A model generated the notes under the pieces. It made no database searches. It was not told the DNA's origin and worked only from the letters and a program-made list of their open reading frames with translations. This document shows, in pieces, positions 1,115 through 63,812 of a stretch of DNA of 64,000 nt. How positions within the stretch are numbered: the stretch's first letter is position 1; each line of letters starts with the position of its first letter. Location: positions 44,005 through 108,004 of the forward strand of contig ONBB01000004.1 of the NCBI GenBank assembly GCA_900315935.1, in the 5' to 3' direction. The position numbers were made by a program, and so were the translations under genes. The stretch comes from an uncultured Bacteroidales bacterium (GTDB lineage Bacteria; Bacteroidota; Bacteroidia; Bacteroidales; P3).

Positions 1115-1129
1115 GTTATTTTTCAATTT

Positions 1130-2641
1130 TCAATTTCCGATTGTTTCGATGGCGCGCTGTATGCGGCGGATGACTTCGTCTTTGCCGAGCATGAGGACGA
1201 GGGTGAGCATGTCAGGTCCCACGGTGCGGCCCACGACGGCGAGGCGGAGGGAGTTCATGATGGCGCCGGTGTTGAGTTGGTTGGCTTTGATGTAGTCTTC
1301 GAGCAGGGCCTGGTGGAGGGCGTCGTACTCGAAGGGGACGGTCTCCAGTATCTCTATGACCTTGGCCATGTGTCCTTCCATTCCAGGTTGCCAGCGTTTA
1401 GCGACATCTTTTTCGTTGTATTCGGTGGGTGCCTGGAAGAAGTAGGAGCAGGTGTCCCAGAGTTCGCCGGGGAAGGTGATGCGTTCCTTCATCATGGAGG
1501 CTACCTTGACCACGTACTCATGTGGTGCCTCAATGCCGTGGCTCTTCACCTGTGTGTCCAGCATGTCGGCCACGGTATCGTCGCTCAGCTGCTGGAAGTA
1601 TTCGTGCTGGAACCAGCGTGCTTTGTCGAGGTTGAACTTGGCGCCGTTCTTGCTGATGTGTTCGATGGAGAAGAGGCGGATGAGCTCGTCCATGGTCATG
1701 AGTTCCTGATCGTTGCCTGGATTCCATCCGAGGAGTGCCAGCATGTTGACCACGGCCTGGGGCAGGTAGCCCTGCTCGCGGTAGCCGTTGGAGGTCTCGC
1801 CGCTTTTGGGGTCGTGCCATTCGAGGGGGAAGACGGGGAATCCGAGGCGGTCGCCGTCGCGTTTGCTGAGTTTGCCGTTGCCGTCGGGTTTGAGGAGCAG
1901 GGGCAGGTGTGCGAACTGCGGCGCCTGCCAGCCGAATGCCTCATACAGCATGATGTGCAGGGGTGCCGAGGGGAGCCATTCTTCGCCGCGGATGACGTGG
2001 GTGATTTCCATGAGGTGGTCGTCGACGATATTGGCCAGGTGGTAGGTGGGCATGCCGTCGGACTTGAAGAGCACTTTATCGTCGAGCAGGCGGGAGTTCA
2101 TGGTTACGTCGCCGCGGATGAGGTCGTGGACGGTGATGTCGGTGTTTTCGGGGAACCTGAAGCGCAGCACGTAAGGATCGCCGCTGTCGAGGCGGCGCTG
2201 CACCTCGTCGGCAGGCAGCGCGAGGCTGTTGCACATGCCGAGGCGGGTGGTGCAGTCGTACTGGAAGGTTTTCTTTTCGGCTTCGTATTCCTTGCGTTTG
2301 GCGTCGAGGGCTTCGGGGGTGTCGAAGGCGTAGTAGGCCCAGCCTCCGGCCAGCAGCTGGTCGGCATACTGGCGGTAGAGCGCCTTGCGGTCGCTCTGGC
2401 GGTAGGGTCCGTAGGGGCCGCCGATGTGGACGCCCTCGTCGAACTCGATGCCGAGCCACTGGAAGGCTTCTATTATGTATTGTTCGGCGCCGGGGACGAA
2501 GCGGGTCTGGTCGGTGTCTTCGATGCGGAGTATCATTTTGCCGCCCTGCTGGCGGGCGAAGAGGTAGTTGTAGAGGGCGGTGCGGACACCGCCGATGTGG
2601 AGGGGACCGGTGGGTGAGGGGGCGAATCTTACTCTAACCAT
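1130..2641 (-). CDS. gltX: Glutamyl-tRNA synthetase
   Basis: A 503-residue class I aminoacyl-tRNA synthetase that charges tRNA(Glu). The HIGH-type motif is [11 protein letters not shown] (about residues 8-18) and the KMSKS loop appears as KLSKRDG (about residues 255-261). The anticodon-binding C-terminal half follows, and the length is normal for bacterial GltX. The start is ATG at 2641, in the classic context [12 protein letters not shown]. It lies 21 bases after the barrel-protein gene and just before the OmpH gene, so co-transcription is likely. Confidence 0.97.
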
Positions 2642-2662
2642 TTCAATTGTTTATTTTGAATT

Positions 2663-3421
2663 TCAATTCAGGAGGTTTCCCAGTTGGTAGCTCAACGAGA
2701 GCATGTAGGCTATGTTGTGTCCGTTGGGTATTTTGACGTCGACGTTGGTGCCTTGCGATTGCATGCTTTGGATGATGCGGAGGATGTCGTCGCCGTCGGA
2801 GGTGGCAAGGAAGCCACGGTCGATGAAGAACGAGAGGGTGAATTTCTGCCGTTCGTAGGTGAGGCCGAAGGTGAGGCCGACATCCAGGCGGTTGATGTGG
2901 TTGAATAGCTGGCGGTCAGCATTGGAGCCGTTGAAGTTGATGTCGTAGTTGGCCGATGGAGAGGCCACGCCCGGGGTGATTTTGCGGTCGCCATAGCCGC
3001 CGAAGAGGCCAAAGCTGACGGTGGGGCCGAGGTATAGGCCGACGATGTGTCCCGACTGGCGGATGGGCAGTTCATAGTGGAGGCCGGCGAGGATGGGTAG
3101 CTGGATGTAGTAGGAGTGGTAGTAGCCGGTGCGGATGCTGATATTGGTCCCGCGGTCGAAGATTTCCTCGAAGTTGCCGCCGCGGCGCACCAGGTTGAGG
3201 CCGGTCTGCAGGTAGAGTACTTCGGCGAACAGGCTTTCGCTGTTTTGGAAGGTGTAGTTGATATAGCCGCCGAGGTTGGCAGCCAGGATGGGCGATTTGC
3301 TTGCCAGGTCGTCGCTGATGGTGGCGGCGCCGAGGCCCGCCTTTACGCCGTATTCGCTGAACTGGCCGTGGGCCATGCTGCCCATCAGGCCGATCAATCC
3401 CAATAAAAGTATCTTCTTCAT
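2663..3421 (-). CDS. Outer-membrane beta-barrel protein (PorT-like family)
   Basis: A 252-residue secreted protein: signal peptide ending near AHGQ (about residue 20), then alternating aromatic and glycine-rich strands ending in an LSYQLGNLLN tail. This matches the small Bacteroidota barrels of the PF13568 type, to which PorT belongs. It starts 6 bases after the DPP IV stop. Its cargo or partner is unknown; I do not claim it is PorT itself, and a second barrel of the same general type lies at 30.5 kb. Confidence 0.75.
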   Translation of the reverse strand: MKKILLLGLIGLMGSMAHGQFSEYGVKAGLGAATISDDLASKSPILAANLGGYINYTFQNSESLFAEVLYLQTGLNLVRRGGNFEEIFDRGTNISIRTGYYHSYYIQLPILAGLHYELPIRQSGHIVGLYLGPTVSFGLFGGYGDRKITPGVASPSANYDINFNGSNADRQLFNHINRLDVGLTFGLTYERQKFTLSFFIDRGFLATSDGDDILRIIQSMQSQGTNVDVKIPNGHNIAYMLSLSYQLGNLLN

Positions 3422-3427
3422 AATCTA

Positions 3428-5680: not shown

Positions 5681-5714
5681 GCTCGGTAGTTCGTTTTTAT
5701 ATTAATATAGAAAT

Positions 5715-12727: not shown

Positions 12728-12827
12728 ATTATTAATATCGGAGTTATGTTAAGTAGAATATTTCTGTAACATGAAATGTTCTATTCCCTGATTGGTCCAT
12801 TTCGGGAAGAAAACGGCAGGTATTCTG

Positions 12828-34119: not shown

Positions 34120-35099
34120 AGAAACACGCCATTGTCCTGCTACTTATCGTCCTCGCCGTAGTGGCGGGATGTTTTGCCGGCGCCTTCGGACTGCGCCAAC
34201 CCACCGCCAACGGCGACACCTGCCGCCTCTACCTGCCCGACGGCACAACCCGCGATGCACTGTGCGACAGCCTGGTGGCCAACCATGTGCTGCACAGCAC
34301 CACGGCCTTCCGCCTCGTAGCACGCCTGTTGCAGCTCAACGACGTGCGCCCCGGCTCCTATGTCGTCGAGCCCCACATGCGCACCCTGACCCTCGTCCGA
34401 AAACTGCGCAACGGCCAGCAGGACCCCATCCGCCTCATCATCGGCAAGTTCCGCACACCCCAGGATCTCAACACCTACCTGAACGCCAAACTGATGCACA
34501 ACGACTTCGACGTGCCGCTCGACAGTTTCCACCTCATCCTGCCCGACACCTACGAATTCTACTGGACCGTAACCCCGCACGCCTTCATGCAGCGCATGGG
34601 AAAGGAGTATCGGAAAGTGGAAAGTGGAAAGTGGAAGGTGGGGAGTGGAGAACCCAACACGCAACACTCAACACTTGACACTTTCAAGGATGTCATCATC
34701 CTGGCCTCCATCGTGGAGGAGGAAAGCAACCACAATCCCGAGAAACCCCTCATCGCCAGCGTCTACCTCAACCGCCTCCGTCGCGGTATGCCGCTGCAGG
34801 CCGACCCGACGGTGAAATACGCCGTGGGCGACTTCACCCTGCGACGCATTCTGCACAAGCACCTCGCCGTCGAAAGCCCCTTCAACACCTACCTCCACAC
34901 CGGCTTGCCGCCCGCCCCCATCTGCCTGCCCTCGAAGTCCAGCATCAATGCTGTATTGAATGCCCCGAAGACGGACTACCTCTACTTCTGCGCCAGCGAC
35001 CAGATGGACGGTACGCACCGCTTCGCCAGCACCCTGGCGCAGCACAACGCCAACGCTGCCGCCTTCCACCGCGCCATGAATGCCCTGGGCATCAAATAG
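34116..35099 (+). CDS. mltG: Endolytic murein transglycosylase MltG
   Basis: A 327-residue inner-membrane protein: an N-terminal transmembrane anchor (about residues 4-24), then a LysM-like part and the YceG domain. The catalytic Glu is in ASIVEEESN (about residue 196); PTVKYAVG and SPFNTYLHTGLPPAPICLPS are typical of the family. It cleaves nascent glycan strands and sets their length. Just before the active-site helix lies a 26-residue insertion (RKVESGKWKVGSGEPNTQH and on), encoded by GTGGAAA and AACACTC heptamers (34611-34683). It starts in the ATGA overlap of the GNAT gene. Confidence 0.93.
   Translation: MKKHAIVLLLIVLAVVAGCFAGAFGLRQPTANGDTCRLYLPDGTTRDALCDSLVANHVLHSTTAFRLVARLLQLNDVRPGSYVVEPHMRTLTLVRKLRNGQQDPIRLIIGKFRTPQDLNTYLNAKLMHNDFDVPLDSFHLILPDTYEFYWTVTPHAFMQRMGKEYRKVESGKWKVGSGEPNTQHSTLDTFKDVIILASIVEEESNHNPEKPLIASVYLNRLRRGMPLQADPTVKYAVGDFTLRRILHKHLAVESPFNTYLHTGLPPAPICLPSKSSINAVLNAPKTDYLYFCASDQMDGTHRFASTLAQHNANAAAFHRAMNALGIK
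34611..34683. repeat. Heptamer tracts (GTGGAAA, then AACACTC) in frame in mltG
   Basis: Four GGAAAGT-type units followed by diverged ones, then AACACGC, AACACTC, AACACTT and GACACTT. They encode an insertion directly before the catalytic motif. Confidence 0.9.
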
Positions 35100-38794: not shown

Positions 38795-40228
38795 ATGAAG
38801 AAAATACTCGCTATAGCCACCCTGCTGGCAGCCTTCCTCACCCTGCAGGCGCAGAGTTACGACATGACCTTCCGGCTGGAGGGCGTGGCGGACAGCCTGC
38901 TGTACATCGCCCGCCACCACCGCGACCAGCTGCAGCCGATGGACTCGGCGCAGCGTGCCAAGGACGGCTCCTACCGCTTCCGCGGCAAGCGCAACTGGCC
39001 GCGCGGCATCTACGCCCTGGTGCACCAGGACGGCAAGAAGGCCATTGGCGACTTCACCATCGACGGCAGCCAGCGATTCACCCTCACAGCCGATGACAAA
39101 CTCACCCCCTCCACCGTACACGTGAAAGGCTGCCAGGCCAACAGCCGCATGTTCGGCTACCTGGCCGTTGTGGCCGACGCGCAACAAAAACAGAAACAGC
39201 TGCGCGAACTCCAAAAAGACCCTTCGCAACGCCCACAGGCCGAGGCCGAGGAGGCGGCCCTGATTGAACAGATGAAACAGACGGAAAAAGGGACCCTCTA
39301 CGGCTACTCCCCCACCCTCTTCTTCCGCATGGTGGCGGCCTGCCGCGAGGGCGACGTGCCCGACAGCGTGGAGGACAAGGCGTTCCACTACCGTGCCCAC
39401 TATTGGGACAACCTCTTTAGCTCGGAGTTCGGAGTTCAGGGTCCGGAGGCTGGCGACCTGCACTCGGCACTGCTCTACAGCCCCAACCTGTACAACAAGG
39501 TGAACTACTTCTTCTTTGGCCAGCTCTATCGCGCCCACAGCGACACCATCTGCCGCGAAATCGACCGCCTGGCCGCCCGCATCGGCGACGACACCGCCCT
39601 GCTGCGCTACGTCTTCGACCACATCGAGCCGCGCTACTTCCGCTCCACCCGCAACATCGGCTGGGACGCCGTATGGTGCCACCTCGCCTCCGAGTACTAC
39701 CTCAAAGGGCGCTGCCCCTGGGCCACCGAAGGCACCCTGCACAACATGCGCTACAACTACAACCGCATCCGCCAAAGCCTCATCGGCGCCCACGGACAGG
39801 AGCTGTGGATGGCCGACACCAACCAAAGCGCCGACACCAAGGACTGGATCAGCAGCCACCGCTTCCCCACCCGCTACGTCATCCTCTGGTTCTGGGACCC
39901 CGACTGCCACCACTGCCAGGAGCAGAGCACCGAGCTGGCCGCCCTCTGCGACTCGCTGCGCGCCGCCAACAACCCCCGTTTCACGGTCTATGCCGTAGGC
40001 TACGAAAGCGATGTGGACAAGTGGAAGAAATACCTCCGCGAGCACCACATGCCCTTCGTCAACGTGGGCGGCCCCAACGTCAACGTCGACTACCAGGAAG
40101 CCTACAACGTGCACGGCGCACCCACCATGATCATCCTCAACGAGCGGCGCGACATCATCATGAACAAGACGCTGCCGGTGAAAAGCATACTGCCCTTCCT
40201 GGACAACTACGAGAAACAAAAGCCATGA
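38795..40228 (+). CDS. TlpA-like periplasmic thioredoxin with N-terminal DUF4369/DUF5106-type region
   Basis: A 477-residue secreted protein: signal peptide MKKILAIATLLAAFLTLQAQ, an N-terminal beta-sandwich (DUF4369-like, about 25-110), a helical DUF5106-like region (120-340) and a C-terminal thioredoxin fold with the redox motif CHHC in WFWDPDCHHCQEQ (about residue 372) and a cis-Pro loop GAPTMIIL. Likely a thiol-disulfide oxidoreductase of the periplasm. A short heptamer tract (CGGAGTT, 39421-39445) encodes SSEFGVQGPE in the helical part. The stop overlaps the mutL ATG by 4 bases. Confidence 0.85.
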   Translation: MKKILAIATLLAAFLTLQAQSYDMTFRLEGVADSLLYIARHHRDQLQPMDSAQRAKDGSYRFRGKRNWPRGIYALVHQDGKKAIGDFTIDGSQRFTLTADDKLTPSTVHVKGCQANSRMFGYLAVVADAQQKQKQLRELQKDPSQRPQAEAEEAALIEQMKQTEKGTLYGYSPTLFFRMVAACREGDVPDSVEDKAFHYRAHYWDNLFSSEFGVQGPEAGDLHSALLYSPNLYNKVNYFFFGQLYRAHSDTICREIDRLAARIGDDTALLRYVFDHIEPRYFRSTRNIGWDAVWCHLASEYYLKGRCPWATEGTLHNMRYNYNRIRQSLIGAHGQELWMADTNQSADTKDWISSHRFPTRYVILWFWDPDCHHCQEQSTELAALCDSLRAANNPRFTVYAVGYESDVDKWKKYLREHHMPFVNVGGPNVNVDYQEAYNVHGAPTMIILNERRDIIMNKTLPVKSILPFLDNYEKQKP

Positions 40229-42006
40229 GCGACATCACCAACATCATCAACATATTGCCCGACAGCGTGGCCAACCAGATAGCCGCCGGCGAGGTGGTGG
40301 ACCGCCCTGCCAGCGCCGTCAAGGAGCTGCTGGAGAACTCGATGGATGCCGGCGCCACGCAAATCGACCTCATCCTCAAGGATGCCGGCCGCACCCTCAT
40401 CCAGGTCATCGACAACGGCTGCGGCATGAGCGACAGCGACGCGCGACTCTGCTTCGAGCGCCACGCCACCAGCAAGATACACCAGGCCGACGACCTCTTC
40501 GCCATCCACACCATGGGCTTCCGTGGCGAGGCGCTGGCCTCCATCGCAGCCATCGCGCAGGTGGAACTCCGCACCCGCCTGCACGACGCCGAGTTGGGCA
40601 CCAGCATCCTCATCGAGGGGTCGCGCATCGTCAGCCAGCAGCCGCAGGCTTGCCCGCCCGGCACCTCGCTGGCCGTGAAGAACCTCTTCTACAACGTGCC
40701 CGCCCGCCGCAACTTCCTCAAAAAAGACGGCGTCGAATTGAGCCACATCGAGGAGGTCTTCCGCCGCATCACCCTCGTGCACCACGACCTGGGCTTCAGC
40801 CTGCAGCACAACGGCAAGACGCTCTACGACCTCAAGGCCGGAAGCATGCTGCAGCGCATCTCGCAGCTCTATGCCAACTACTACAAGGAGCGCCTGCTTC
40901 CCATCGAGGAGGAGACCGACCTGGTGCGCATCAAGGGCTTCGTGGGCAAACCCGAGCACGCCCGCAAGACGCGCGGCGAGCAGTACCTCTTCGTCAACGG
41001 GCGCTACATCAAGCACGCCGCCCTCAATACGGCTGTGGAACGCGCCTACGACGACCTGCTGCCCGACCGCAGCCACCCCTCCTACTTCATCGCCCTGCAG
41101 GTCGACCCCGCACGCATCGACATCAACATACACCCCAACAAGACCGAGGTGCGCTTCGTGGACGACCACGCCCTGTTCGCCATCCTGCGGTCGGCCGTCA
41201 AGAAAGCGCTGGGGCAGTTCACCCTGGCCACGGAACTCAGCTTCGACACCCCGCCCGAATTCAACCTCGCCCCCGCCCCCAGCGGCTACATACCCCAGCA
41301 GCCCAAGATAAGCTACAACCCCGACTACAACCCCTTCCGCCCCTCCCCCACCCAGACCCGCATAAAACTGGACACCCCCAATACCCTGCCCGACCTAAAC
41401 GACCCACTCCTCACTCCTCACTCCACACTCCTCACCCCTCACTCCTCGCTCCCCACCACTCCCTGCCTGCAGCTGCAGGACCGCTACATCGCCACCGCCC
41501 TCTCCTCCGGCCTGGCGCTGATCGACCGCCAGCGCGCCCTCGAGCGCATCCTTTACGACCGACTGACTCCGAACTCCGAACTCCGAACCCCGAACTCACA
41601 GACGCTGCTTTTCCCCATCAACTGCCAGTTCTCGGCCGCCGACGCCGAGCTGATGGGCGAGCTGCTGCCCGACCTGCAGGACTACGGCTTCGCCCTCGAG
41701 GCCGTGGGGCAGACCACCTTCGTGGTAACCGCCACGCCCGCTGACGTGCAGGAGGCCAACCTGCAGCCTTTCTTCGAGCAGCTGCTGGCCGACTACAAAG
41801 CCTCGACCCTGCAGAAGTTCTGCGACCGCGGCCAGAGCCTGCGTGCCGCGCTGGCGCGCCAGATGGCCGCCCGCGCCACCTCGCCCCTCTCGCAGGAAGA
41901 GATGCAGCAGCTGGTGGCCGACCTCTTCGCCTGCCCCATGGCCGACACCACCCCCGGCGGAAAACGCATCATCACCATCGTAAAACCCGAGGAAATATTC
42001 AAGTAG
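40225..42006 (+). CDS. mutL: DNA mismatch repair protein MutL
   Basis: A 593-residue GHKL ATPase that couples MutS to downstream repair. The ATP-site motifs are ELLENSMDAG, DNGCGM and GFRGEALASI, followed by the transducer domain and a C-terminal dimerisation domain. The start is ATG 40225; the upstream open frame is an antisense/out-of-frame extension. In the C-terminal domain the endonuclease motif expected as DQHA..E reads IDRQRALERILYD, so the key histidine is not aligned, although QTLLFPI and a CPMADTTPGGKR motif are present. Two in-frame heptamer tracts (41403-41458 ACTCCTC; 41568-41600 ACTCCGA) fill the linker and the N-side of the C-terminal domain. Confidence 0.95.
   Translation: MSDITNIINILPDSVANQIAAGEVVDRPASAVKELLENSMDAGATQIDLILKDAGRTLIQVIDNGCGMSDSDARLCFERHATSKIHQADDLFAIHTMGFRGEALASIAAIAQVELRTRLHDAELGTSILIEGSRIVSQQPQACPPGTSLAVKNLFYNVPARRNFLKKDGVELSHIEEVFRRITLVHHDLGFSLQHNGKTLYDLKAGSMLQRISQLYANYYKERLLPIEEETDLVRIKGFVGKPEHARKTRGEQYLFVNGRYIKHAALNTAVERAYDDLLPDRSHPSYFIALQVDPARIDINIHPNKTEVRFVDDHALFAILRSAVKKALGQFTLATELSFDTPPEFNLAPAPSGYIPQQPKISYNPDYNPFRPSPTQTRIKLDTPNTLPDLNDPLLTPHSTLLTPHSSLPTTPCLQLQDRYIATALSSGLALIDRQRALERILYDRLTPNSELRTPNSQTLLFPINCQFSAADAELMGELLPDLQDYGFALEAVGQTTFVVTATPADVQEANLQPFFEQLLADYKASTLQKFCDRGQSLRAALARQMAARATSPLSQEEMQQLVADLFACPMADTTPGGKRIITIVKPEEIFK
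41403..41458. repeat. ACTCCTC heptamer tract in the mutL linker
   Basis: Seven near-identical 7-bp units (ACTCCTC, ACTCCAC, ACCCCTC and so on) encode LLTPHSTLLTPHSSLPTTP in the linker before the C-terminal domain. A second tract, ACTCCGA, follows at 41568-41600 (RLTPNSELRTPNSQ). Confidence 0.95.
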
Positions 42007-42136
42007 TGGAAACTCACAACTCATAATTCATAACTCTTAACTCTTAACTCATAATTCATAACTCTTAACTCAAAACTCACAACTCATAACTCATAATTCA
42101 TAACTCATAATTCATAACTCAAAACTCATAACTAAA
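42007..42136. repeat. AACTCAT heptamer tract between mutL and rhomboid
   Basis: About seventeen 7-bp units (AACTCAT, AATTCAT, AACTCTT, AACTCAA, AACTCAC) fill nearly the whole spacer between the mutL stop and the rhomboid ATG. Confidence 0.95.
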
Positions 42137-44518: not shown

Positions 44519-46702
44519 ATGAAACGTTTACTATTTGTATTATTCTTTATGTCATTGTGGCAAAGTGTTTTTGCCTATAATTACCCTGCTGTGGCACCTA
44601 GTGGCCAGACGCTGTATTACAATATTGGTGACGGCGGAGTTACCGTTACTTATCCTAGCTCCAGTTCCTATTGGAATGGTTATAGCAAACCCACAGGAGA
44701 CTTGACAATCCCTGACAGTGTAACCTTTGGCGGCACCACCTATGCGGTAACCTCCATCGGAAACGAGGCATTCAAAAATTGCATCGGCCTGACGTCGGTA
44801 ACCATCCCCAACTCGGTAACCTCCATCGGGAGTGGCGCGTTCTCTGGTTGCAGCGGCTTGACATCGGTAACCATCCCCAACTCGGTAACCTCCATCGGGA
44901 GTGGCGTGTTCTCGGGTTGCAGCGGCTTGACGTCGGTAACCATCCCCAATTCGGTAACCTCCATTGGGGCAGATGCGTTCGAGAATTGCAGCGGCCTGAC
45001 CACCGTCCATTTCAATGCCGACAGCTGCACGTACGCAGGCGGCTCCGATAGAGCCTTTTATAATTGCCCCAATATTACCACTTTCACGTTTGGCAACAAT
45101 GTCAAGATTATCCCTGACTATCTATGCTATGATATGGATAGCTTGACCTCGGTAACCATCCCCAACTCTGTAATCTCCATCGGTCATAATTTCCAGTCTT
45201 GTGATAGCTTAACATCAATCATTGTTGACAGTGAAAACGGCGTATACGACAGTCGCAATAACTGCAACGCCATAATTGAGACTGCAACAAATACGCTTCT
45301 TACAGGTTGCAGAAACACGACAATTCCCAACACTGTTACCCACATCGGAAACTTTGCATTCGCTGGTTGCAGCGGCCTGATGTCGGTAACCATACCAAAC
45401 TCCGTAACCTCCATCGGGGAGAGCGCGTTCGCTGGTTGCAGCGGCCTAGCGTCGGTAACCATACCCAACACTGTTACCCACATCGGAAACTTTGCATTCT
45501 CTGGTTGCAGCGGCCTGACGTCGGTAACCATCCCCAACTCCGTAACCTCCATCGGACGCGAGGCATTAAAAAATTGCAGCGGCCTGACCACCGTCCATTT
45601 CAATGCCGACAGCTGCACGTACGCAGGCTACTCCTACCCCAACACCTATAGTGCCTTTTCTGGTTGCCACAATATTACCACTTTCATATTTGGCAACAAT
45701 GTCATGATTATCCCAAACTATCTATGCTATGATATGGATGGCTTGACGTCGGTAACCATCCCCAACTCCGTAACCTCCATCGGGGAGCGCGCGTTCGAGA
45801 ATTGCAGCGGCCTGATGTCGGTAACCATCCCCAACTCGGTAACCTCCATCGGGTCATATGCGTTCTCTAGTTGCAGCGGCCTGACATCGGTAACGATAGG
45901 TAACTCCGTAAGCTCTATAGGATCTGATGCATTCAAAAATTGCAGCGGCCTGACGTCGGTAACCATTCCCAACTCGGTAATGTACATTGAAGGATTTGCA
46001 TTCAGAGATTGCAGCGGCCTGACGTCAGTAACGCTTGGCAGCGGTGTGGACCATATAGGGGATGATGCTTTCGCTGGATGCATCCACCTTCGTAGTATAG
46101 TATCAAAGGCCACATATCCACCGATTTGTTTCAGTGGTACGTTTGTGGGAGTTCCTTCGTATTGCACGCTGACAGTCCCATGCGGGTCTTTGCCTTACTA
46201 TAGTGTGCAATCACCATGGGATACACAGTTCCCCCTAAAGCAGGAAGACTGCCGCACGGAATACACCCTCATTGTGGAGAGTGCGGACCCGACGATGGGG
46301 TATGTTGTCGGCGGGGGCACAGCCCGGAACGGAGACACCGTTGTCATCTGCGCCGTCGGCAATCCCGGCTACCGTTTCCAGCGGTGGCAGGACGGCAATA
46401 CGGATAGCGTGCGCACGGTAACGGTTACCGGTAACGCCACCTATACGGCCTACTTTGCCGAGACGGTGGGGGTCGAAGATGTGGCTGATGGCGAGGGTGT
46501 CCGCGTGTGGTCCTACGACAGCCGCATCCATGTTGTGGGTGCCGAGGGGATGGATGTGAACGTGTACGACATGCTCGGCCGCCGTGTAAATGGAAAGCGG
46601 AAGGTGGAGAGTGGAAAGCTGGAGTTGACGGTGCCTGCCGGGGTGTACCTGGTGCGCATCGGCGACCTGCCGGCACGGAAGGTGGTGGTGATCAGGAGTT
46701 AA
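44519..46702 (+). CDS. BspA-like leucine-rich-repeat surface protein with T9SS sorting tail
   Basis: A 727-residue protein. Signal peptide MKRLLFVLFFMSLWQSVFA; then about 18 LRR_5-type repeats of 23 residues (consensus LTSVTIPNSVTSIGxxAFxGCSG) through about residue 560; an InlB-like beta repeat (YTLIVESADPTMGYVVGGG, about 595-650); and a T9SS type A tail (residues 660-727, VNVYDMLGRRV, PAGVYLVRIGD). BspA-like proteins bind host proteins or co-aggregate. Repeat units are nearly identical at DNA level, so copy number can change by recombination. A heptamer tract (46590-46620) encodes GKRKVESGKLEL in the sorting domain. Intermediate GC; starts 35 bases after the SIR2 gene. Confidence 0.92.
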   Translation: MKRLLFVLFFMSLWQSVFAYNYPAVAPSGQTLYYNIGDGGVTVTYPSSSSYWNGYSKPTGDLTIPDSVTFGGTTYAVTSIGNEAFKNCIGLTSVTIPNSVTSIGSGAFSGCSGLTSVTIPNSVTSIGSGVFSGCSGLTSVTIPNSVTSIGADAFENCSGLTTVHFNADSCTYAGGSDRAFYNCPNITTFTFGNNVKIIPDYLCYDMDSLTSVTIPNSVISIGHNFQSCDSLTSIIVDSENGVYDSRNNCNAIIETATNTLLTGCRNTTIPNTVTHIGNFAFAGCSGLMSVTIPNSVTSIGESAFAGCSGLASVTIPNTVTHIGNFAFSGCSGLTSVTIPNSVTSIGREALKNCSGLTTVHFNADSCTYAGYSYPNTYSAFSGCHNITTFIFGNNVMIIPNYLCYDMDGLTSVTIPNSVTSIGERAFENCSGLMSVTIPNSVTSIGSYAFSSCSGLTSVTIGNSVSSIGSDAFKNCSGLTSVTIPNSVMYIEGFAFRDCSGLTSVTLGSGVDHIGDDAFAGCIHLRSIVSKATYPPICFSGTFVGVPSYCTLTVPCGSLPYYSVQSPWDTQFPLKQEDCRTEYTLIVESADPTMGYVVGGGTARNGDTVVICAVGNPGYRFQRWQDGNTDSVRTVTVTGNATYTAYFAETVGVEDVADGEGVRVWSYDSRIHVVGAEGMDVNVYDMLGRRVNGKRKVESGKLELTVPAGVYLVRIGDLPARKVVVIRS

Positions 46703-46979: not shown

Positions 46980-47030
46980 CCATGCCCGTCTCCTACCTAC
47001 CGTGGGCTTGCGCCCACGGCTAAATTCCAT

Positions 47031-48615: not shown

Positions 48616-51333
48616 ATGGAAATCGCTTCAAAATACGACCCTCGCGCTGTCGAGGAGAAATGGTACCAATTCTGGATTGACAAAAAACTCTTCCACTCGG
48701 AGCCCGACAACCGCGTGCCCTACACGGTGGTGATACCGCCACCCAACGTAACCGGTGTGCTCCACATGGGCCACATGCTCAACAACACCATCCAGGACGT
48801 CCTCGTCCGCCGTGCCCGCATGCAGGGCAAGAACGCCTGCTGGGTGCCCGGCACCGACCACGCCTCCATCGCCACCGAGGCCAAGGTGGTCAAGATGCTG
48901 GCAGAAAAGGGCATCGACAAGCGCTCGCTCAGTCGCGAAGACTTCCTGAAACACGCCTGGCAGTGGAAAGAGGAGTACGGCGGCATCATCCTCAAGCAGC
49001 TGCGCCGCCTCGGTGCCTCCTGCGACTGGGACCGCACCGCCTTCACCATGGACGAGGTGCGCTACGAGAGCGTCATCCGCGTCTTCGTCGACCTCTACAA
49101 CAAGGGGCTCATCTACCGCGGCGTGCGCATGGTCAACTGGGACCCCCAGGCGCTGACCGCCGTCAGCGACGAGGAGGTCATCTACAAGGAGAGCCGCGGC
49201 AAACTGTTCTACCTCCGCTACTTTGTGGAGGGTGAAGACAAATACATCGTGGTCGCCACCACCCGCCCCGAGACCATCATGGGCGACACCGCCGTCTGTG
49301 TGCACCCCGAGGACGAGCGCTACCAGTGGCTTAAAGGCAAGAAAGTCGTGGTCCCCGGCGTGGGACGCGCTGTCCCTGTCATCATGGACGAGTACGTCGA
49401 CCGCGAGTTCGGTACCGGTGCCCTCAAGATTACCCCTGCCCACGATATCAACGACTACAACCTGGGCATGAAGTACAACCTCGAGAGTATCGACATTTTT
49501 AACGACAACGGTACCCTGAAAGATGTTGATAAGTTAAAAGTTGATAAGTTGTCATGCCCGTATCAACGTATCAACGTATCAACCTACTGCGGCCTCGACC
49601 GCTTCGCCTGCCGCAAGCAGATAGTGAAGGACCTCGAGGCTGCCGGCCTCATCGAGAAAATAGAGGACTACACCAACAAGGTGGGCCACAGCGAGCGCAC
49701 CGATGCGGTGATAGAGCCCAAGCTCTCCGCCCAGTGGTTCCTCAAGATGGACGGCATCTCCAAGCAGGCCCTCGAGGTGGTGGAGAACGACACTGTCCGC
49801 TTCCACCCCGCCAAGTTCAAGAACACCTACCGCCACTGGCTGGAGAACATCAAGGACTGGTGCATCAGCCGCCAACTGTGGTGGGGCCAGCGCATACCGG
49901 CTTGGTACCTTGATGTGGACGGCCGCGTAGAGACCGTCGTGGCCCTCAACGAAGAAGAGGCCAGAAAGATTGCCGCCGAGAAGTATGGCTACACCGGCAC
50001 CCTCCGCCAGGACGAGGACGTGCTCGACACATGGTTCAGCTCCTGGCTGTGGCCCATCTCCCTCTTCGATGGCATCCGCAACCCGGGCAATCCCGAAATC
50101 AGCTACTACTACCCCACCGCCGACCTCATCACCGGCCCCGATATCATCTTCTTCTGGGTGGCCCGCATGATTATGGCCGGCCTGGAATACCCCCACGACA
50201 TACCCTTCCGCAACGTATACTTCACCGGCATCGTGCGCGACAAGCTAGGCCGCAAGATGTCCAAGCAGCTCGGCAACAGCCCCGACCCCATCGAGCTCAT
50301 CGAGAAATACGGTGCCGACGGCGTCCGCATGGGCATGCTCCTCACTGCCCCTGCCGGCAACGACCTGCCCTTCGACGAAGCCATCTGCGAACAGGGCCGC
50401 AACTTCTCCAACAAGCTGTGGAATGCCCTTAGACTGATTAGTGGCTGGCAGGTCTCCAGTGATTCCGAAATCTCCGGTGAATCCGAGAAGAACAACGCCG
50501 TAGCCGTCCAATGGATGGAGCAGCGCATGGCCCAGGTGCTGGAGGAGATTGAGAAGGACTTCGACCAGTACCGCCTCAGCGAAGCCCTCATGGCTGCCTA
50601 CAAACTGGCCTGGGATGACTTCTGCTCGTGGTACCTCGAAATGGTCAAGCCCGCCCACGGCACCCCCATCGACCACGAAACCTACAATGCCACCATCAGC
50701 ATCTTCTCGCGCCTGATGCTCATCCTGCACCCCTTCATGCCCTTCGTTACCGAAGAGATATGGCATGCCCTGCAGACCATCGGCAAGGAGGACGAAAAGG
50801 CTGCATTCATCAATGCCAACTACAGCATCATGAACCAACACATGCCCACCTCCGTCTTCTACGACCAGCGCCTGCTGGATGAGTTCGACACCGCTCGCGA
50901 GGTCATCGCCGGCGTGCGCAACATACGCAACACCCGCGGCCTCTCGCCCAAGGAACCCCTGGCTGTGAGCTATATCGCCAAGGACGACCGCTTCCAAGTG
51001 GACCGCTTCGCAGGCATCATCCGCAAGCTGGGCAACGTAACCGACATCGCCGCCGTCAGCGAGCAGCCTGCCGGCGCACTGCAGTTCATGGTCGGCACAG
51101 CCGAGTGCTACGTCCCCATGAGCCAGAATGTCAACAAGGAAGAAGAACTCAAGAAGTTGCAGGAGGACCTAAAATACTACGAAGGCTTCCTCCGCAGCGT
51201 GATGGGAAAACTGTCTAACGAGAAGTTCGTCAACGGAGCCCCCGCCCCCGTCATCGAGAAGGAGCGCAACAAGCAACGCGACGCCGAAAGCAAGATAGCA
51301 GCCATCAAGGCACAAATCGAAGCCCTCGGATAA
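48616..51333 (+). CDS. valS: Valyl-tRNA synthetase
   Basis: A 905-residue class I synthetase. HIGH motif [17 protein letters not shown] (about residues 38-54), editing domain ([13 protein letters not shown]), the Lys-loop [14 protein letters not shown] (about 550), anticodon domain and a C-terminal coiled coil ([17 protein letters not shown] and on). In the editing domain a GATAAGTT/GTATCAAC short-period tract (49522-49583) encodes [20 protein letters not shown] in a loop after FNDNGTLKD. Length otherwise normal. Confidence 0.97.
49522..49583. repeat. Short-period tract in frame in valS
   Basis: GTTGATAA/GTTAAAA units are followed by GTATCAAC three times, in frame inside the editing domain. 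Confidence 0.85.
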
Positions 51334-53961: not shown

Positions 53962-54546
53962 ATGACACGCATAGAAGAATCCATCCATCAAAGCATCGCC
54001 GTCAAACAGCAGATACTGTCCGACACCGCGCTGATGCAGCGTGTGGCCGAGGCTGCACAGATGATAGAGCAGAGCCTGCGCAATGGTGGCAAGATACACT
54101 TCTGCGGCAACGGAGGCAGCGCCGCCGACGCGCAGCATCTGGCTGCCGAACTCAGCGGGCGCTTCTACTTCGACCGCCCGCCCCTCAACGCCGAGGCCCT
54201 GCATTGCAACACCAGCTACCTCACCGCCGTAGGCAACGACTACGGTTACGACTACGTCTTCGCCCGCCTGCTGCGCGGCACCGGCCACCGAGGCGATGTG
54301 CTGGTGGGCATCAGCACCAGCGGCAACAGCCGCAACATACTGGAAGCCTACCGTGTGGCACAGGAGTTAGGCATCAGCATCATCTCGATGACCGGCGAGA
54401 CCGGTGGCAAGATGCGCGACTGCGGCGGTCTGCTGCTCAACGTGCCCAGCACCGATACCCCCCGCATACAGGAGAGCCACATCATGCTCGGACACATCAT
54501 CTGCGAGCTGGTCGAAACGGCAATGTTCGGGGAGGGGATGAAGTAG
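53962..54546 (+). CDS. gmhA: Sedoheptulose 7-phosphate isomerase
   Basis: A 194-residue SIS-domain enzyme that makes D-glycero-D-manno-heptose 7-phosphate, the first heptose step. Motif FCGNGGSAADAQHLAAEL (about 52-69), VGISTSGNSRNILEA and IQESHIMLGHIICELVE with the Glu/His of the active site are present. It is 38 bases after hddA. The stop is followed by a 7-bp tract of AGTAGGA units (54543-54580). Confidence 0.95.
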   Translation: MTRIEESIHQSIAVKQQILSDTALMQRVAEAAQMIEQSLRNGGKIHFCGNGGSAADAQHLAAELSGRFYFDRPPLNAEALHCNTSYLTAVGNDYGYDYVFARLLRGTGHRGDVLVGISTSGNSRNILEAYRVAQELGISIISMTGETGGKMRDCGGLLLNVPSTDTPRIQESHIMLGHIICELVETAMFGEGMK

Positions 54547-54580
54547 GAAGTAAGAGGTAAGAAGTTAGAAGTAGGAAGAA
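54543..54580. repeat. AGTAGGA heptamer tract between gmhA and hddC
   Basis: Units AGTAGGA, AGTAAGA, GGTAAGA, AGTTAGA and AGTAGGA span the gmhA stop and the hddC ATG. Confidence 0.85.
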
Positions 54581-57626: not shown

Positions 57627-58280
57627 TCAGCGCATGTCGATGACCTCCACCTCGGGATGGGCCTTGGGGTCGAAGGTGAATGAGGCGGTGGGGAGTGAGA
57701 ATTTGTGGCCGCTGAAGTCGTATATTTCGCGGCCGGAGTCGTACTTGTGCATCTCGATGCGGCGCAGGGTGCCGTCCTTCTCGGCGATGAAGAGGCGCAG
57801 CTTGTGGTAGCTCTGTGCCGAGCGGGGCTGGAGGTCGATGACGGCACTGCCGTCGTCGTCGGTGCGTATATATTTGGCCTTGAAGTTTTTGGCGTGGTTT
57901 GCCACGAGGCGCCCGGGATTCAGGAGATCCATATCGTCGTCGCTCGCGGCGGTGATGGTTACCTCTTTGGCCTGCTTGTTCCAGTGCCAGATGGTGGTGC
58001 CGTCGGAGATGACCTCCTGGCCGGCCACCTCGAGGCGGTACTTGCCGTGGTGGTAGCGCACGGTGGCGGTGTGCTTGGCCTGCTGCTGCTTCTGGCCGTC
58101 GAGGACGGTGCGGGTAACGGTGCAGCGCATGTTGTCCATCCGCTTGGCGGCCTTCTGGAGAGCCGCGGTGGCGTTCTCGTCCAACTGTCCCTGCGAGGCG
58201 TGGGTGATCTGCGCCTGCAAAATTGAAGATTGGAGATTGAAAATTGAAAAAAGCGCCGCTATCAGGAGTATCTTTTTCAT
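57627..58280 (-). CDS. LolA-like outer-membrane lipoprotein carrier protein
   Basis: A 217-residue periplasmic protein with the LolA-like half-barrel: RMDNMRCTVTRTVL, repeated KYRLEVAGQEVISDGTTIW and a C-terminal FSLPTASFTFDPKAHPEVEVIDM. It would carry lipoproteins from the Lol ABC machine to the outer membrane. The signal peptide h-region and cleavage area (residues 11-22, FSIFNLQSSILQ) are encoded by a 7-bp repeat tract (58217-58253). A Bacteroidota LolA relative, not necessarily the main LolA. Confidence 0.85.
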   Translation of the reverse strand: MKKILLIAALFSIFNLQSSILQAQITHASQGQLDENATAALQKAAKRMDNMRCTVTRTVLDGQKQQQAKHTATVRYHHGKYRLEVAGQEVISDGTTIWHWNKQAKEVTITAASDDDMDLLNPGRLVANHAKNFKAKYIRTDDDGSAVIDLQPRSAQSYHKLRLFIAEKDGTLRRIEMHKYDSGREIYDFSGHKFSLPTASFTFDPKAHPEVEVIDMR

Positions 58281-60557: not shown

Positions 60558-61592
60558 GACGGCCTGCGAGCAGCTGAAGGTCATCAGCAGTCCGCCACTG
60601 GGCAAAGCCTCCATAGCGCGCTGGTTGATAGCGCGGTAGCCTTTCAACCCCTGCTGCAGCGATCGGTGGTTCTTGGCGAAGGCCGGCGGGTCGAGGATAA
60701 TAAAGTCGAATTTTGAATTTTGAAATTCGAACTTGGCAAGATATTGCAGCACATCGGCCACGGTGCCGCGGTGCGGTGCGTCGGAGCCGAAGTTGAGCTG
60801 CACGTTGCGGTTGCAGAGCTCGATGGCTTTCTTGCTGATATCCACCGTCTCCACGTATGCGGCACCGCCACGCAGGGCGGCAAGGGAAAAGCCGCCGGTG
60901 TAGCCGAAACAGTTGAGCACGCGGTGCCCCCGGGCTAGCTGCGAGACGAGCTCGCGATTTTCGCGCTGGTCGATGAAGAAGCCTGTCTTCTGACCCTCGA
61001 AGAAGTTGATTAGCAACTGGTTGCCGTGTTCGGAGATTTGGTGCTCCTGCGGTTCGATGCCCCAGAGGTAGCCATCGGTGGCACCGCCGGGGACGGTGGT
61101 GGCGCTCTTGTCGAAGACGGCCAGCAGGCGGTCGCCCAGCAGCTGGCGGAAGAGGTCGGTGAAGAGGGGGAAGAGGCGGTGCATGCCGACGCTATGGGCC
61201 TGAAGGACAAGGACACCGTTGTACCAGTCAGCCACAAGGCCGGGCAGGTAGTCGCCCTCGGCGTGGATGAGGCGGAAGACGTTGGTGAGTTCTGAGTTCT
61301 GACTATCAAAGAATCCCAGCCGCTCGCGGTAGGCGATGGCGGAGTGGAAGCGCTGCTTGAAGAAGTTGCTGTCAACCTGCTGAGTGTCAAACGAAAGCAC
61401 CTTGCAGAGGATAGAGTCGTCCTGGTAGTGGCCGGTGGCCATCCAGCGTCCGTCGGAGGCATGGATGTCGACGAGATCCCCTTCCTGTGGAGTGCCTTCG
61501 ATGCGCTTCACCGCGCCGGAGAAGACCCAGGGATGGCGGCGCAGGAGGGCTTTGTCCCTGCCGTGGGCGATGATTAGTTTGGGACGCGTCAT
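60399..61592 (-). CDS. rlmI: 23S rRNA (cytosine-5-)-methyltransferase RlmI-like
   Basis: A 397-residue class I SAM methyltransferase with an N-terminal PUA domain (PWVFSGAVKRIEGTPQEGD). The SAM-binding motif is VLNCFGYTGGFSLAAL, and the catalytic LDPPAFAK (about 300-307) and TFSCSQAVS (Cys) blocks are present. I start at ATG 61592; the frame upstream is shadow. It overlaps rpe by 4 bases. Two heptamer tracts are in frame (GAATTTT at 60710-60735; GAGTTCT at 61288-61310). The exact target position (C1962 in E. coli) is assumed by homology. Confidence 0.9.
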   Translation of the reverse strand: MTRPKLIIAHGRDKALLRRHPWVFSGAVKRIEGTPQEGDLVDIHASDGRWMATGHYQDDSILCKVLSFDTQQVDSNFFKQRFHSAIAYRERLGFFDSQNSELTNVFRLIHAEGDYLPGLVADWYNGVLVLQAHSVGMHRLFPLFTDLFRQLLGDRLLAVFDKSATTVPGGATDGYLWGIEPQEHQISEHGNQLLINFFEGQKTGFFIDQRENRELVSQLARGHRVLNCFGYTGGFSLAALRGGAAYVETVDISKKAIELCNRNVQLNFGSDAPHRGTVADVLQYLAKFEFQNSKFDFIILDPPAFAKNHRSLQQGLKGYRAINQRAMEALPSGGLLMTFSCSQAVSRDDFQTMLFTAAMNAGRRVRIVRRLPHAMDHPVSIHHPEGEYLKGLLLQVE

Positions 61593-62233: not shown

Positions 62234-63126
62234 AACTTGAGCTTTTCAAAATTCTTGCCATAGACGCCCTGGGTCTTGTTGACCGAGATGAAGGCGTTCT
62301 CGTCGATGCGGTTGATGATCTGCATCACGTGCGACTTGTCGGTGCGGTGCACCATCATGAGGAGCACCTTCTGCTGCTGGCGGGAGTAGCTGCCCTCGGC
62401 GTCGAGGAGCGTGGCGCCGCGGCCCACCTCGCGGGTTACGGCGTCGGCAATCTCCTCGTTCTTGAGCGAGAAGACCATAATCTGGTAGGACTGCTTGTTG
62501 CCGTCGAGCACCATGTCGAGCACGTAGGTCATGACGCCCATGACGACATAGCCGTAGACGACGTTGCCGATTTTGTGCGAGACGAAGTAGGAGCAGCCGA
62601 CGATGACGATGTCGAGCAGCATGATGACGCGGCCGGGCGAGATGTTGTAGTACTTGGTAACGATGAGCGCGATGATGTCGGTGCCGCCGGTGTTGCCGCC
62701 CATGATGAACGAGAGGCCGATGCCGAGGCCGCAGAGGGCGCCGCCGATGATGGCGCACATGAAGGGGTCGAACTGCATGGTGCCGTCGGGGTTGCGGAAG
62801 AGGTTCTCCACGTGGAGCCCCTGCTGCCACATGATGAAGAAGACGGACGACATGGCGATGCCGTAGATGGTGTTGGCTCCGAACTTGGAACCCAGCATCT
62901 TGAATCCGATGGCGACCAGGATGCCGTTGAACACCAGGTTCAGGACACCGATGGGCACGTGGATGCCGACGGCGTAGTAGAGGATGGCCGAGAGGCCGCT
63001 GACACCGCCACCCACAATCTGCGCCGGCAGCATAAAGGCCGACCAGCCGAAGGTGTAGGTCAACAGTCCGAGGGTGATGACCACGTAGGAGATGACGATG
63101 TTCTTGCTTTTCTTGAATATCTGCAT
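62230..63126 (-). CDS. YitT family membrane protein
   Basis: A 298-residue inner-membrane protein. Six hydrophobic segments lie in residues 10-200 with the family motif QIVGGGVSGLSAILYY and NLVFNGILVAIGFKMLGSKF. The C-terminal DUF2179-like domain (about 215-290) carries GRGATLLDAEGSYS and a HRTDKSHVMQIINRID segment. The function is unknown; YitT proteins have been suggested as transporters. It starts 5 bases after the yggS stop. Confidence 0.88.
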   Translation of the reverse strand: MQIFKKSKNIVISYVVITLGLLTYTFGWSAFMLPAQIVGGGVSGLSAILYYAVGIHVPIGVLNLVFNGILVAIGFKMLGSKFGANTIYGIAMSSVFFIMWQQGLHVENLFRNPDGTMQFDPFMCAIIGGALCGLGIGLSFIMGGNTGGTDIIALIVTKYYNISPGRVIMLLDIVIVGCSYFVSHKIGNVVYGYVVMGVMTYVLDMVLDGNKQSYQIMVFSLKNEEIADAVTREVGRGATLLDAEGSYSRQQQKVLLMMVHRTDKSHVMQIINRIDENAFISVNKTQGVYGKNFEKLKL

Positions 63127-63131
63127 AATGG

Positions 63132-63812
63132 TTAGTTTTTCTTGCTGTAATCGCGTGCACCGAAGATGCTGCTGCCAATGCGGACGAGGGTGGCGCCTTC
63201 GGCCAGGGCGAGGGGGTAGTCGTGGCTCATGCCCATGGAGAGCTCGCGGAAGTGGGGCGCCTGGGCGAAGGGGCCGGCCTTGAGGCGGTCGAAGAGCTGG
63301 CGCGCGGCGTGGAAGTCGGCTCGCACACGGGCCTCGTCGTCAGTGTTGCTGGCCATGGCCATGAGGCCGCAGATGCGGACATGTGCCAACTCGCTCTCCA
63401 CCTTCCACTTTCCACTCTCCACTTCCAGCTCCCCGGGGAGGAAGCCGAACTTGGTTTCTTCCTGGGCCACATGCACCTGCAAGAGCACGTCGACGGTGCG
63501 CCCCACCTTGGCGGCGGCGGCCTCCACGTCGTGGAGGTGCTCCAGGGAGTCGACCCCGTGAATCATGCTGACGAAGGGGATGTAGTACTTGAGCTGCTTG
63601 GACTGGAGGTGGCCTATGAAGTGCCACTCGATGTCGTCAGGCAGCTGGGCAGCCTTGTCGCGCAGCTCGGTGGCATAGTTCTCGCCGAAGAGGCGCTGGC
63701 CAGCGTGGTAGGCTTCCAGGATGTCCTCCACGGGCTTGAGTTTGGATACGGCCACCAGGCGCGCCGAGGGCGGCAGGGTGGACTGGATGCGGGATAGGTT
63801 GTCGGCAATCAT
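63132..63812 (-). CDS. YggS-family PLP-binding protein
   Basis: A 226-residue single-domain PLP protein (PLPBP/YggS), a TIM-barrel that buffers PLP. The PLP lysine is Lys24 in AVSKLKPVED; GENYATELRDKA, WHFIGHLQSKQ and SMGMSHDYPLAL are diagnostic. A GTGGAAA-type heptamer tract (63392-63435) encodes LEVESGKWKVESELAH, inserted between GFLPGE and VRICGLMAM. First gene of the group yggS-YitT-rpe-rlmI. Confidence 0.93.
   Translation of the reverse strand: MIADNLSRIQSTLPPSARLVAVSKLKPVEDILEAYHAGQRLFGENYATELRDKAAQLPDDIEWHFIGHLQSKQLKYYIPFVSMIHGVDSLEHLHDVEAAAAKVGRTVDVLLQVHVAQEETKFGFLPGELEVESGKWKVESELAHVRICGLMAMASNTDDEARVRADFHAARQLFDRLKAGPFAQAPHFRELSMGMSHDYPLALAEGATLVRIGSSIFGARDYSKKN

What the first reader, a model, noticed from the sequence alone, without database searches (positions are those of the whole stretch)
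1115..63435. A class of 7-bp-period degenerate tracts in spacers and, in frame, inside housekeeping genes
Imperfect tandem tracts with a 7-bp (occasionally 8-bp) unit occur at more than fifteen places: 1117-1140, 28578-28757, 30378-30514, 33716-33751, 34611-34683, 39421-39445, 41403-41458, 41568-41600, 42007-42136, 46590-46620, 49522-49583, 54543-54580, 58217-58253, 60710-60735, 61288-61310 and 63392-63435. Units differ (AATTCAA, AACTCAT, GTGGAAA, ACTCCTC, AGTAGGA, GGAGTTC), but most fit a GA-R-TT-like skeleton on one strand. Many lie in frame in essential genes (valS, mutL, mltG, coding of a LolA-like signal peptide), always at a loop or domain edge. Since 7 is not a multiple of 3, selection must have kept only frame-compatible lengths. 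Similar short tandem repeats are known in cyanobacteria; a shared mechanism here would be new to me.
Basis: partly seen in the sequence, partly recalled or inferred. Interest (0 to 1): 0.8.

Follow-up and report, generated by a model that had tools for sequence, protein, structure and literature searches.

The report
Heptad-repeat palindromes inserted in bacterial genes
A group of uncultured gut Bacteroidales is littered with short 7-base repeats, a part of which are the two arms of small hairpin-shaped DNA inserts that have landed, in frame, inside essential genes, which would tie two unexplained kinds of bacterial repeat together.

Summary
The 7-bp tracts are real. In 442 kb sampled from the genome (window included), lag-7 segments (score >=14) number 38, against 0 in codon-shuffled sequence and 0-4 at other periods up to 13 except 8, 9 and 11. 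They are insertions that sister species lack: 16 residues in ValS, 51 codons in a glycosyltransferase. Units share a skeleton, [AG][AG][AG]T[TG]NN on a C-poor strand.

When neighbouring tracts within 150 bp lie on opposite strands, the C-poor strand comes first in 32 of 32 pairs; beyond 150 bp the order is 25 to 36. Some pairs enclose a conserved core (ATCCGGGTGCGGCAGCC), recur at unlinked sites, sit in frame in housekeeping genes, and are missing, core included, from nearly all orthologues of the two genes checked. They resemble Rickettsia palindromic elements, but their arms are heptad arrays of changeable sequence. I read the tracts as arms, whole or halved, of such elements, reshaped by 7-bp slippage: supported for about a quarter of tracts, inferred for the rest. 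The mobilising enzyme was not found.

The parts
1117..1140 (-). short TTTTCAA tract at the 1126/1130 gene boundary (OmpH-like gene and Glu/Gln-tRNA synthetase gene)
   Evidence: lag-7 score 11; Pfam hosts
28578..28757 (+). two 87-bp copies of an AAATTCA / AATTCCGAAAG heptad block inside a glycosyltransferase gene; net +153 bp against G023 and G008; G007 has a different repeat-bearing insert (+51 bp) at the same spot
   Evidence: TRF, Pfam, orthologue spans
30378..30514 (+). 8-bp tract AAGTAGTT/AAGGAGTT filling the spacer before an outer-membrane beta-barrel gene
33713..33751 (+). AAGTGGA tract at the recG / acetyltransferase boundary; G023, G008 and G007 carry other tandem units at this spot
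34611..34683 (+). inverted pair inside mltG: GGAAAGT array (C-poor strand first), spacer, CAACACT array; translated EYRKVESGKWKVGSGEPNTQHSTLDTFKD
39421..39445 (+). short GGAGTTC tract in a thioredoxin-like gene
   Evidence: (score 9.5)
41403..41458 (+). CACTCCT tract in the variable linker of mutL
41568..41600 (+). ACTCCGA tract inside the MutL C-terminal domain (TPNSELRTPNSQ); L012 has a CTCAACT-type heptad array at the same place
42007..42136 (+). longest tract, about 17.6 AACTCAT units, filling the mutL / rhomboid spacer; absent from G007, G008, L009, L011 and L012, replaced by short ACACTGA-type heptads in L013 and G023
46590..46620 (+). weak degenerate GGAAAGT-like tract near the 3' end of a BspA-type LRR gene
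   Evidence: lag-7 identity 0.62; Pfam
49522..49583 (+). inverted pair of 8-bp arrays inside valS: GTTGATAA units (C-poor strand first), spacer, CGTATCAA units; 16 extra residues absent from six same-genus ValS
   Evidence: RNA fold z -3.5, 2 of 200 shuffles fold as well
54540..54580 (+). GAAGTAA tract ending at the start codon of a nucleotidyltransferase gene
58217..58253 (-). AAAATTG tract encoding part of the signal peptide of a LolA-like protein
60708..60735 (-). GAATTTT tract inside a SAM-methyltransferase gene (FEFQNSKFDFIILDPP); L069 has an inverted AGTGGGT palindrome at the orthologous spot
61286..61310 (-). short TGAGTTC tract in the same methyltransferase gene
   Evidence: score 10
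63392..63435 (-). TCCACTT tract in an Ala_racemase_N gene, peptide LEVESGKWKVESE

Best explanation
The heptad tracts are the arms, complete or reduced to one, of small dispersed palindromic insertion elements of this Bacteroidales genus. A complete element is [heptad array, C-poor strand] - short core - [heptad array, opposite strand], roughly 60-110 bp, and folds as a hairpin. Elements insert in spacers and in permissive turns of genes. In genes only copies that are stop-free and of frame-keeping length survive, so they become translated peptides such as IENGKLKIENYPGAAANSQFSILNSQF. After insertion the arms gain, lose and homogenise 7-bp units by replication slippage, so the unit turns over while the 7-bp phase and the RRRTK skeleton persist. 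The core decays, leaving single tracts. Shown: excess, insertion, skeleton, polarity, core, dispersal, in-frame position. Inferred: translation, that most single tracts descend from such elements, that slippage drives unit turnover, and that an enzyme moves the elements.
For: Polarity: all 32 opposite-strand neighbour pairs (gap <=150) are C-poor strand first: 21 of 21 in the first set (15 loci), 11 of 11 in a second set (9 loci; 7 from G007, 2 each from G002 and G006). By distance: <=50 nt 27:0, 51-150 nt 2:0, beyond 150 nt 25:36. The core RGCTG[ACG]CGC or its complement lies within 35 nt 3' of 26 of 327 seven-bp tracts, at 16 sites (expected 0.74 tracts per orientation), and 5' of none; the arms next to it are of many unit types. 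Ten of 29 such pairs are inside genes, among them MurD, PurH, NqrA, MnmA and ValS. Empty sites, judged on protein alignments: MnmA has the element in G006 alone of 27, NqrA in G002 and G008 of 29; no other row has its core peptide. 25 of 25 copies looked at align as arm-core-arm, at 22 distinct sites, with the core recognisable in about 20. G053 has 56 core hits against 2 for the reversed control; 11 of 11 fetched copies have AAATTGA-type left arms and right arms of at least two unit types. In-gene units are stop-free. Tracts with no neighbour show weak inverted arms more often 3' than 5': 15 vs 2 of 204 at score >=12.
Against: Only about a quarter of tracts show a partner: 29 C-poor-first pairs, 58 of 304 tracts, plus 15-21 of the 204 neighbourless tracts with a weak 3' arm. 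Only 26 of 327 have the core. The 16-base core shows no excess in the window's own genome (5 hits vs 6 control), and no window tract has the core motif (elsewhere in that genome L120 and L121 do). Arms of one element are usually not the same unit (mean 5.33 of 7 identical, 2 of 21 pairs identical). The MurD pairs are separated by 50 and 140 nt of conserved coding sequence, so they are not single inserts. Inserts replace a few residues rather than being clean, and no target-site duplication was established. Y1_Tnp is absent from tract-rich G008; no other mobilising enzyme was looked for. Other Bacteroidales families and a cyanobacterial plasmid have heptads with no, or one, inverted pair. None of the 11 G053 copies lies in an open frame.
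Confidence: 0.58

Rival explanations
1. Ordinary heptanucleotide simple-sequence repeats made by polymerase slippage, with no element behind them; spacers and loops are simply where they are tolerated. The inverted pairs are then a separate, smaller phenomenon.
For: Heptanucleotides were the commonest class of long repeats in most genomes surveyed, and slippage over a 7-nt polymerase contact was proposed (Mrazek 2007, as described in PMC4679880, and PMC4692102). The same site carries different units in sister species. About three quarters of tracts show no partner arm. Heptads occur in 116 of 395 sampled Bacteroidota genomes and period 7 dominates on a cyanobacterial plasmid.
Against: Slippage alone predicts no order between neighbouring strands, no shared core and no shared skeleton beyond composition.
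Confidence: 0.3
2. The tracts are made by directional synthesis from DNA 3' ends: a broken or nicked end is extended with the C-poor strand (by a telomerase-like or template-switching polymerase) and joined. Two extended ends give the C-poor-first inverted pair, one extended end gives a single tract.
For: Explains the 32:0 order, the separate unit in each arm, the loss of a few residues at insertion sites and C-free units that resemble telomere G strands (resemblance recalled).
Against: Does not explain the conserved core in unlinked copies or the repeated left arm plus core in 11 G053 copies. No candidate enzyme was sought.
Confidence: 0.08
3. Functional regulatory elements: terminators, ribosome-binding or protein-binding sites upstream of genes, as proposed for TAACTGA repeats in Beggiatoaceae.
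For: 145 of 303 tracts lie in spacers between co-oriented genes; downstream of gene ends the C-poor strand is more often the coding strand (55 vs 27 in tandem spacers); MacGregor 2015 suggests translational regulation (abstract).
Against: 10 of 29 inverted pairs are inside genes and only 2 in convergent spacers. Non-periodic palindromes, which should include ordinary terminators, show no polarity (55 vs 56). Units and presence change between sister species at the same spacer.
Confidence: 0.04

Closest known systems
Rickettsia palindromic elements (RPE; Ogata 2000, 2002) and Wolbachia palindromic repeats (Ogata 2005, seen only in a reference list)
   Same: Small palindromic repeats dispersed in spacers and inserted in frame in conserved protein genes; one such protein shown to be translated and active (passages in PMC10969869, and PMC2229807).
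   Different: RPEs are described as 105-146 bp or about 150 bp repeats in sequence families. Here only a short core is conserved; the arms are 7-bp tandem arrays whose unit differs between copies. Different phylum.
Heptanucleotide long simple sequence repeats (Mrazek 2007), cyanobacterial STRRs, TAACTGA repeats (MacGregor 2015), GGGNATC repeats (Rehm 2015)
   Same: 7-bp units, scattered over the genome, lineage-patchy, mostly intergenic; TAACTGA repeats occur in five Bacteroidetes including Paludibacter.
   Different: The passages read describe one or a few units, mainly in spacers. Here dozens of units share a skeleton, many lie in frame in housekeeping genes, and a subset is arranged as polar palindromes with a core.
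MITEs and REP/BIME elements
   Same: Short, palindromic, without a transposase gene of their own, sometimes in genes.
   Different: No transposase partner or target-site duplication established; Y1_Tnp is not required.
Coding palindromes of Nematomorpha mitochondria (PMC6649704)
   Same: Inverted repeats inside functional protein genes (abstract).
   Different: There the arms encode conserved protein regions; here the arms are additions in variable turns.

Membership tests
Rickettsia palindromic elements (RPE-like coding palindromes) | palindromic, folds as a long hairpin | tested here: met
   palindrome scan, 29 with period-7 arms; RNA folds of three elements z -5.6, -3.6, -3.5
Rickettsia palindromic elements (RPE-like coding palindromes) | inserted in frame in unrelated conserved genes, with empty sites in relatives | tested here: met
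Rickettsia palindromic elements (RPE-like coding palindromes) | copies homologous over the whole element | tested here: not met
   core conserved, arms differ in unit between copies; so not filed as an RPE, only as RPE-like
Rickettsia palindromic elements (RPE-like coding palindromes) | translated and tolerated in the protein | not testable with these tools
   indirect only: units stop-free in sense in 82 of 95 in-gene tracts
Heptanucleotide simple sequence repeats / STRR | 7-bp tandem units in clear excess over other unit lengths | tested here: met
   in 80 related loci period 11 is as frequent (85 and 85), and 8 and 9 are enriched too
Heptanucleotide simple sequence repeats / STRR | copy number changes by slippage | not testable with these tools
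   no strain series; between species length and unit differ
MITE | terminal inverted repeats with target-site duplication and a related transposase | tested here: inconclusive
   inverted arms yes; no duplication noted in the alignments inspected, but no dedicated test was made; Y1_Tnp not required; other transposases not tested
Intrinsic terminator | lies downstream of genes, mostly between convergent genes | tested here: not met
   2 of 29 inverted pairs in convergent spacers, 10 of 29 inside genes

The most novel reading that the evidence does not exclude
Heptanucleotide repeats across Bacteroidota, and perhaps cyanobacteria, are the weathered arms of a class of protein-coding, hairpin-shaped selfish elements whose arms are copied in one direction only, the C-poor strand 3' ends facing inward, so that a long-known unexplained repeat class and the coding palindromes of Rickettsia are one phenomenon.
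Probability: 0.13. Interest if true: 0.85.

Novelty: new variant of a known kind. Interest (0 to 1): 0.62.

Why it matters
Heptanucleotide repeats have long been listed in bacterial genomes with no agreed origin. This genus has dozens of sequenced species that differ in presence and unit at the same site of orthologous genes, and an order rule that separates mechanisms. It also adds Bacteroidales to the few lineages in which palindromic DNA sits in frame in housekeeping proteins, with an arm design not described in the passages I read. It bears on annotation too: species-specific peptides in ValS, MurD, NqrA or MnmA are insertions, not domains.

Tried and rejected
Terminator or other regulatory hairpin: rejected for the palindromes by location and by the absence of polarity in non-periodic palindromes.

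Core as a pre-existing target site: rejected for the two genes checked, because orthologues of NqrA and MnmA without the element show no core peptide.

REP-type mobilisation by Y1 transposase: 22 of 31 genomes have it, but tract-rich G008 does not (G008 is 88% complete).

Species-specific unit 'dialects' (dispersal within a genome): same-genome minus different-genome similarity 0.13 against null 0.033 +- 0.061, maximum 0.295, not significant.

Mirror copying of one arm from the other: the unit is identical in only 2 of 21 pairs, though arms are more alike (5.33 of 7) than other C-strand tracts of the same genome (4.46).

MutL 'N-terminal extension' in the ORF 39673-42006: I take it as overlap with the upstream thioredoxin-like gene.

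Other lineages: 33 tracts in four other Bacteroidales families, no inverted pairs (these contigs were picked because they bore tracts). Cyanobacterial plasmid NC_007410, 300 of 366 kb: 10 lag-7 segments >=14, skeleton fit 9 of 15 against null 6.1, one inverted pair, C-poor first: inconclusive. BLAST of the longest tract against plasmids gave no match, as its low-complexity filter would make likely.

Literature: searches; their listings (9 to 20 papers each, out of up to 37,609) showed no paper on heptad-armed or coding palindromes in Bacteroidales; most subscription journals are not held.

Biases: the G023 and G008 stretches and the G007 stretches lie on contigs that earlier searches had listed, mostly for tract matches, so their densities are inflated. 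L070 and L165 turned out to be largely the same DNA; neither holds an inverted pair. Gene context rests on a simple codon-usage caller of my own.

Odds were lowered slightly, from 0.60 to 0.58 and from 0.14 to 0.13; the slippage rival rose from 0.28 to 0.30.
Full report
WHAT THE WINDOW IS. The window is G000:C18:44005-108004 of a 2.29-Mb, 31-contig genome, G+C 0.585. The nearest named relatives by MutL are uncultured Bacteroidales/Bacteroidetes MAGs, many with rumen or other gut sample names; the most similar is RUG10805, 78%. Matching contig lengths suggest that G023 is RUG061, G008 is RUG377 and G007 is UBA3684.

Autocorrelation in the window peaks at lag 7, and 15 of the 16 listed intervals contain a lag-7 or lag-8 segment. 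In a 442-kb sample of the same genome, window included, lag 7 gives 49/38/26 segments at score 10/14/18; a codon-shuffled null gives 0.2 and 0 at the first two. In 80 related loci (1.42 Mb) lag 7 gives 85, lag 11 also 85, lags 8 and 9 give 29 each, and lags 4, 5, 6, 10, 12 and 13 give 0-7. Density per 100 kb varies within the genus from 0 (G009, G016, G018, G019; samples of only 11-40 kb) to 36 (G007, contigs known to bear tracts). The pattern GARTTNN x4 occurs in 25 of 41 genomes, own included, and in 116 of 395 drawn from the phylum; in many rows the reversed control is lower (G687 46 vs 0, G456 50 vs 1), with exceptions (G725 15 vs 50).

THE TRACTS ARE INSERTIONS. ValS of the window has [22 protein letters not shown] where six same-genus ValS have a turn 16 residues shorter; G016 has another insert of 12 residues there. 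The glycosyltransferase has 153 extra bp against G023 and G008, and G007 has a different insert at the same place. Spacers behave alike: downstream of mutL the window has AACTCAT heptads, G008 and G007 have none, L013 and G023 have ACACTGA-type heptads. In MurD (28 same-genus loci aligned; for the last block 14 rows were displayed) the loop before the E(D/N)DY motif carries a different heptad-coded peptide in different species (SSLLTPHSSL, FSIFNFQFSIL, LSPFTSHLSPL): the site persists and the unit changes. In genes, 82 of 95 tracts have units that are stop-free in the sense strand; in tandem spacers 29 of 145. So in-gene tracts are most likely read as protein and filtered by selection.

THE UNITS FOLLOW A SKELETON. 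Of 163 units with at least two G/C positions, 128 have G or C but not both on a strand (57 expected). 66% of tracts have under 10% of the minor base, against 1.1% of random windows, 45% of 8-bp, 10% of 9-bp and 18% of 11-bp arrays. Registered on the C-poor strand, units are [AG][AG][AG]T[TG]NN: log-likelihood -1102 against -1305 +- 13 for letter-shuffled units. 186 of 203 tracts, and 63 of 77 distinct units, fit NRRTKNN (shuffled 125 and 42 +- 3.5). The tracts come from related genomes, so they are not fully independent. Variants inside tracts fall preferentially on positions 1, 6 and 7.

PALINDROMES WITH POLARITY. Of 42 neighbouring tract pairs within 150 bp, 20 have the same strand, 21 opposite strands and one is neutral; all 21 are C-poor strand first. 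I then took 665 kb from ten same-genus genomes: 11 more opposite pairs, again all C-poor first, 7 of them from G007. By distance the ratio is 27:0 up to 50 nt, 2:0 to 150 nt and 25:36 beyond, a built-in control. A separate palindrome scan gives 26 C-poor-first, 2 reverse and 1 neutral among palindromes with period-7 arms; 55 to 56 (16 neutral) among non-periodic ones; and the opposite sign, 4 to 36 (2 neutral), for period-11 arms. Of 29 inverted pairs with gene context, 16 are in tandem spacers, 10 inside genes, 2 convergent, 1 at an edge. The host genes are MurD (two pairs), PurH, NqrA, MnmA, a TsaD-family (TsaB-like) gene, a helicase with an HRDC domain, a thioredoxin-like gene, ValS and one without a Pfam match. 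In MurD the two arms flank conserved coding sequence, so they are two inserts facing each other rather than one. In the window the ValS (8-bp) and MltG inserts have the C-poor-first design.

A CORE AND DISPERSED COPIES. RGCTG[ACG]CGC or its complement occurs within 35 nt 3' of 26 of 327 seven-bp tracts (16 sites; 0.74 tracts expected per orientation) and 5' of none; for 8-bp tracts 5 of 121 and none. Searching with MnmA of G006 returned 38 rows elsewhere in the genus that match only the element, some being two strands of one site. I looked at 23 of them, and with NqrA and MnmA all 25 align as arm - core - arm; three pairs are orthologous, so 22 sites. The core is ATCCGGGTGCGGCAGCC-like in most, CGGCTGACGC-like in a few, and diverged in about five. 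In 16 of the 25 a frame is open through the element and 90 nt on each side, in nine not (two of the 25 were chosen because they lie in genes, and a protein query favours such frames). MnmA has the element only in G006 of 27 aligned orthologues; G008 and G023 show a one-arm-like VDSGQWTVDSG at the same turn. NqrA has it in G002 and G008 of 29, and G006 has a different paired insert there. G053 has 56 core hits (up to 2 mismatches) against 2 for the control, most other genomes are near background, and the window's genome shows no excess. The exact core is found in 1 of 395 genomes drawn from the class, so this core looks close to genus-specific. In 11 G053 copies the left arm is AAATTGA-type and the core identical while the right arm takes at least two unit types; none of the 11 is in an open frame. 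A possible second core, CATTTGWCCWCGWGTG with AGTGGGT arms, appears at two loci (L069, L024), with a looser third in L016.

MECHANISM. The simplest account that covers polarity, core, skeleton, dispersal and in-frame position is descent from small palindromic insertion elements, followed by 7-bp slippage in the arms and decay of the core. The skeleton is then an inheritance, not necessarily a physical need. Among 204 tracts with no neighbour, inverted-arm remnants are commoner on the 3' side (15 vs 2 at score 12; 21 vs 4 at score 8), which fits half-decayed elements, but most single tracts show nothing. Plain slippage remains possible for those. What moves the elements is unknown; only one transposase family was looked for.

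KNOWN AND NEW. Heptanucleotide repeats are known (PMC4679880: abstract and passages; PMC4692102: introduction and passages) and so are coding palindromes (PMC10969869 and PMC2229807: passages; PMC6649704: abstract). New here, as far as the listings of seven literature searches show, is a palindrome whose arms are heptad arrays, with one polarity, in frame in housekeeping genes of Bacteroidales.

Noticed in passing
window 12825-12854, 18388-18424, 25872-25904, 37404-37443: A second class: 11-bp arrays of an AGGGGAACGCT-like unit; two of them are followed by a TGGAAGCATA-like 10-bp repeat. Near one helical turn per unit, perhaps a regulator site.
   Followed up: partly
L137, L138, L140, L148, L149, L151, L156 (e.g. 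L138:14286-14353): Dispersed near-identical palindromes of about three 11-bp units on each arm (TTCTTCAGTAG units - GCCGC-like loop - ACTGAAGAACT units) in G023 and G008; period-11 palindromes are often in divergent spacers and have the opposite polarity to the heptads.
   Followed up: partly
L195:59-132, L115:155-278 and NqrA of G001 and G012: Other palindromes in coding sequence (CCCCTCT..AGAGGGG, peptides like TPCPSPIGEG) recur in the genus, perhaps a further family of in-frame inserts.
   Followed up: no
L357:3742-3972: Four heptad arms at a 68-bp spacing in G053, with a core at the last, as if arm plus core had been duplicated in tandem.
   Followed up: no
window 44745-46059, 47009-47249, 59122-59301, 59900-60049: 69-bp repeats of a BspA-type LRR gene, and 68-, 66- and 48-bp tandem repeats.
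   Followed up: no
L149:6492-6881, L120:6402-9088: Hot spots with several heptad or octad tracts of different units within 3 kb.
   Followed up: no
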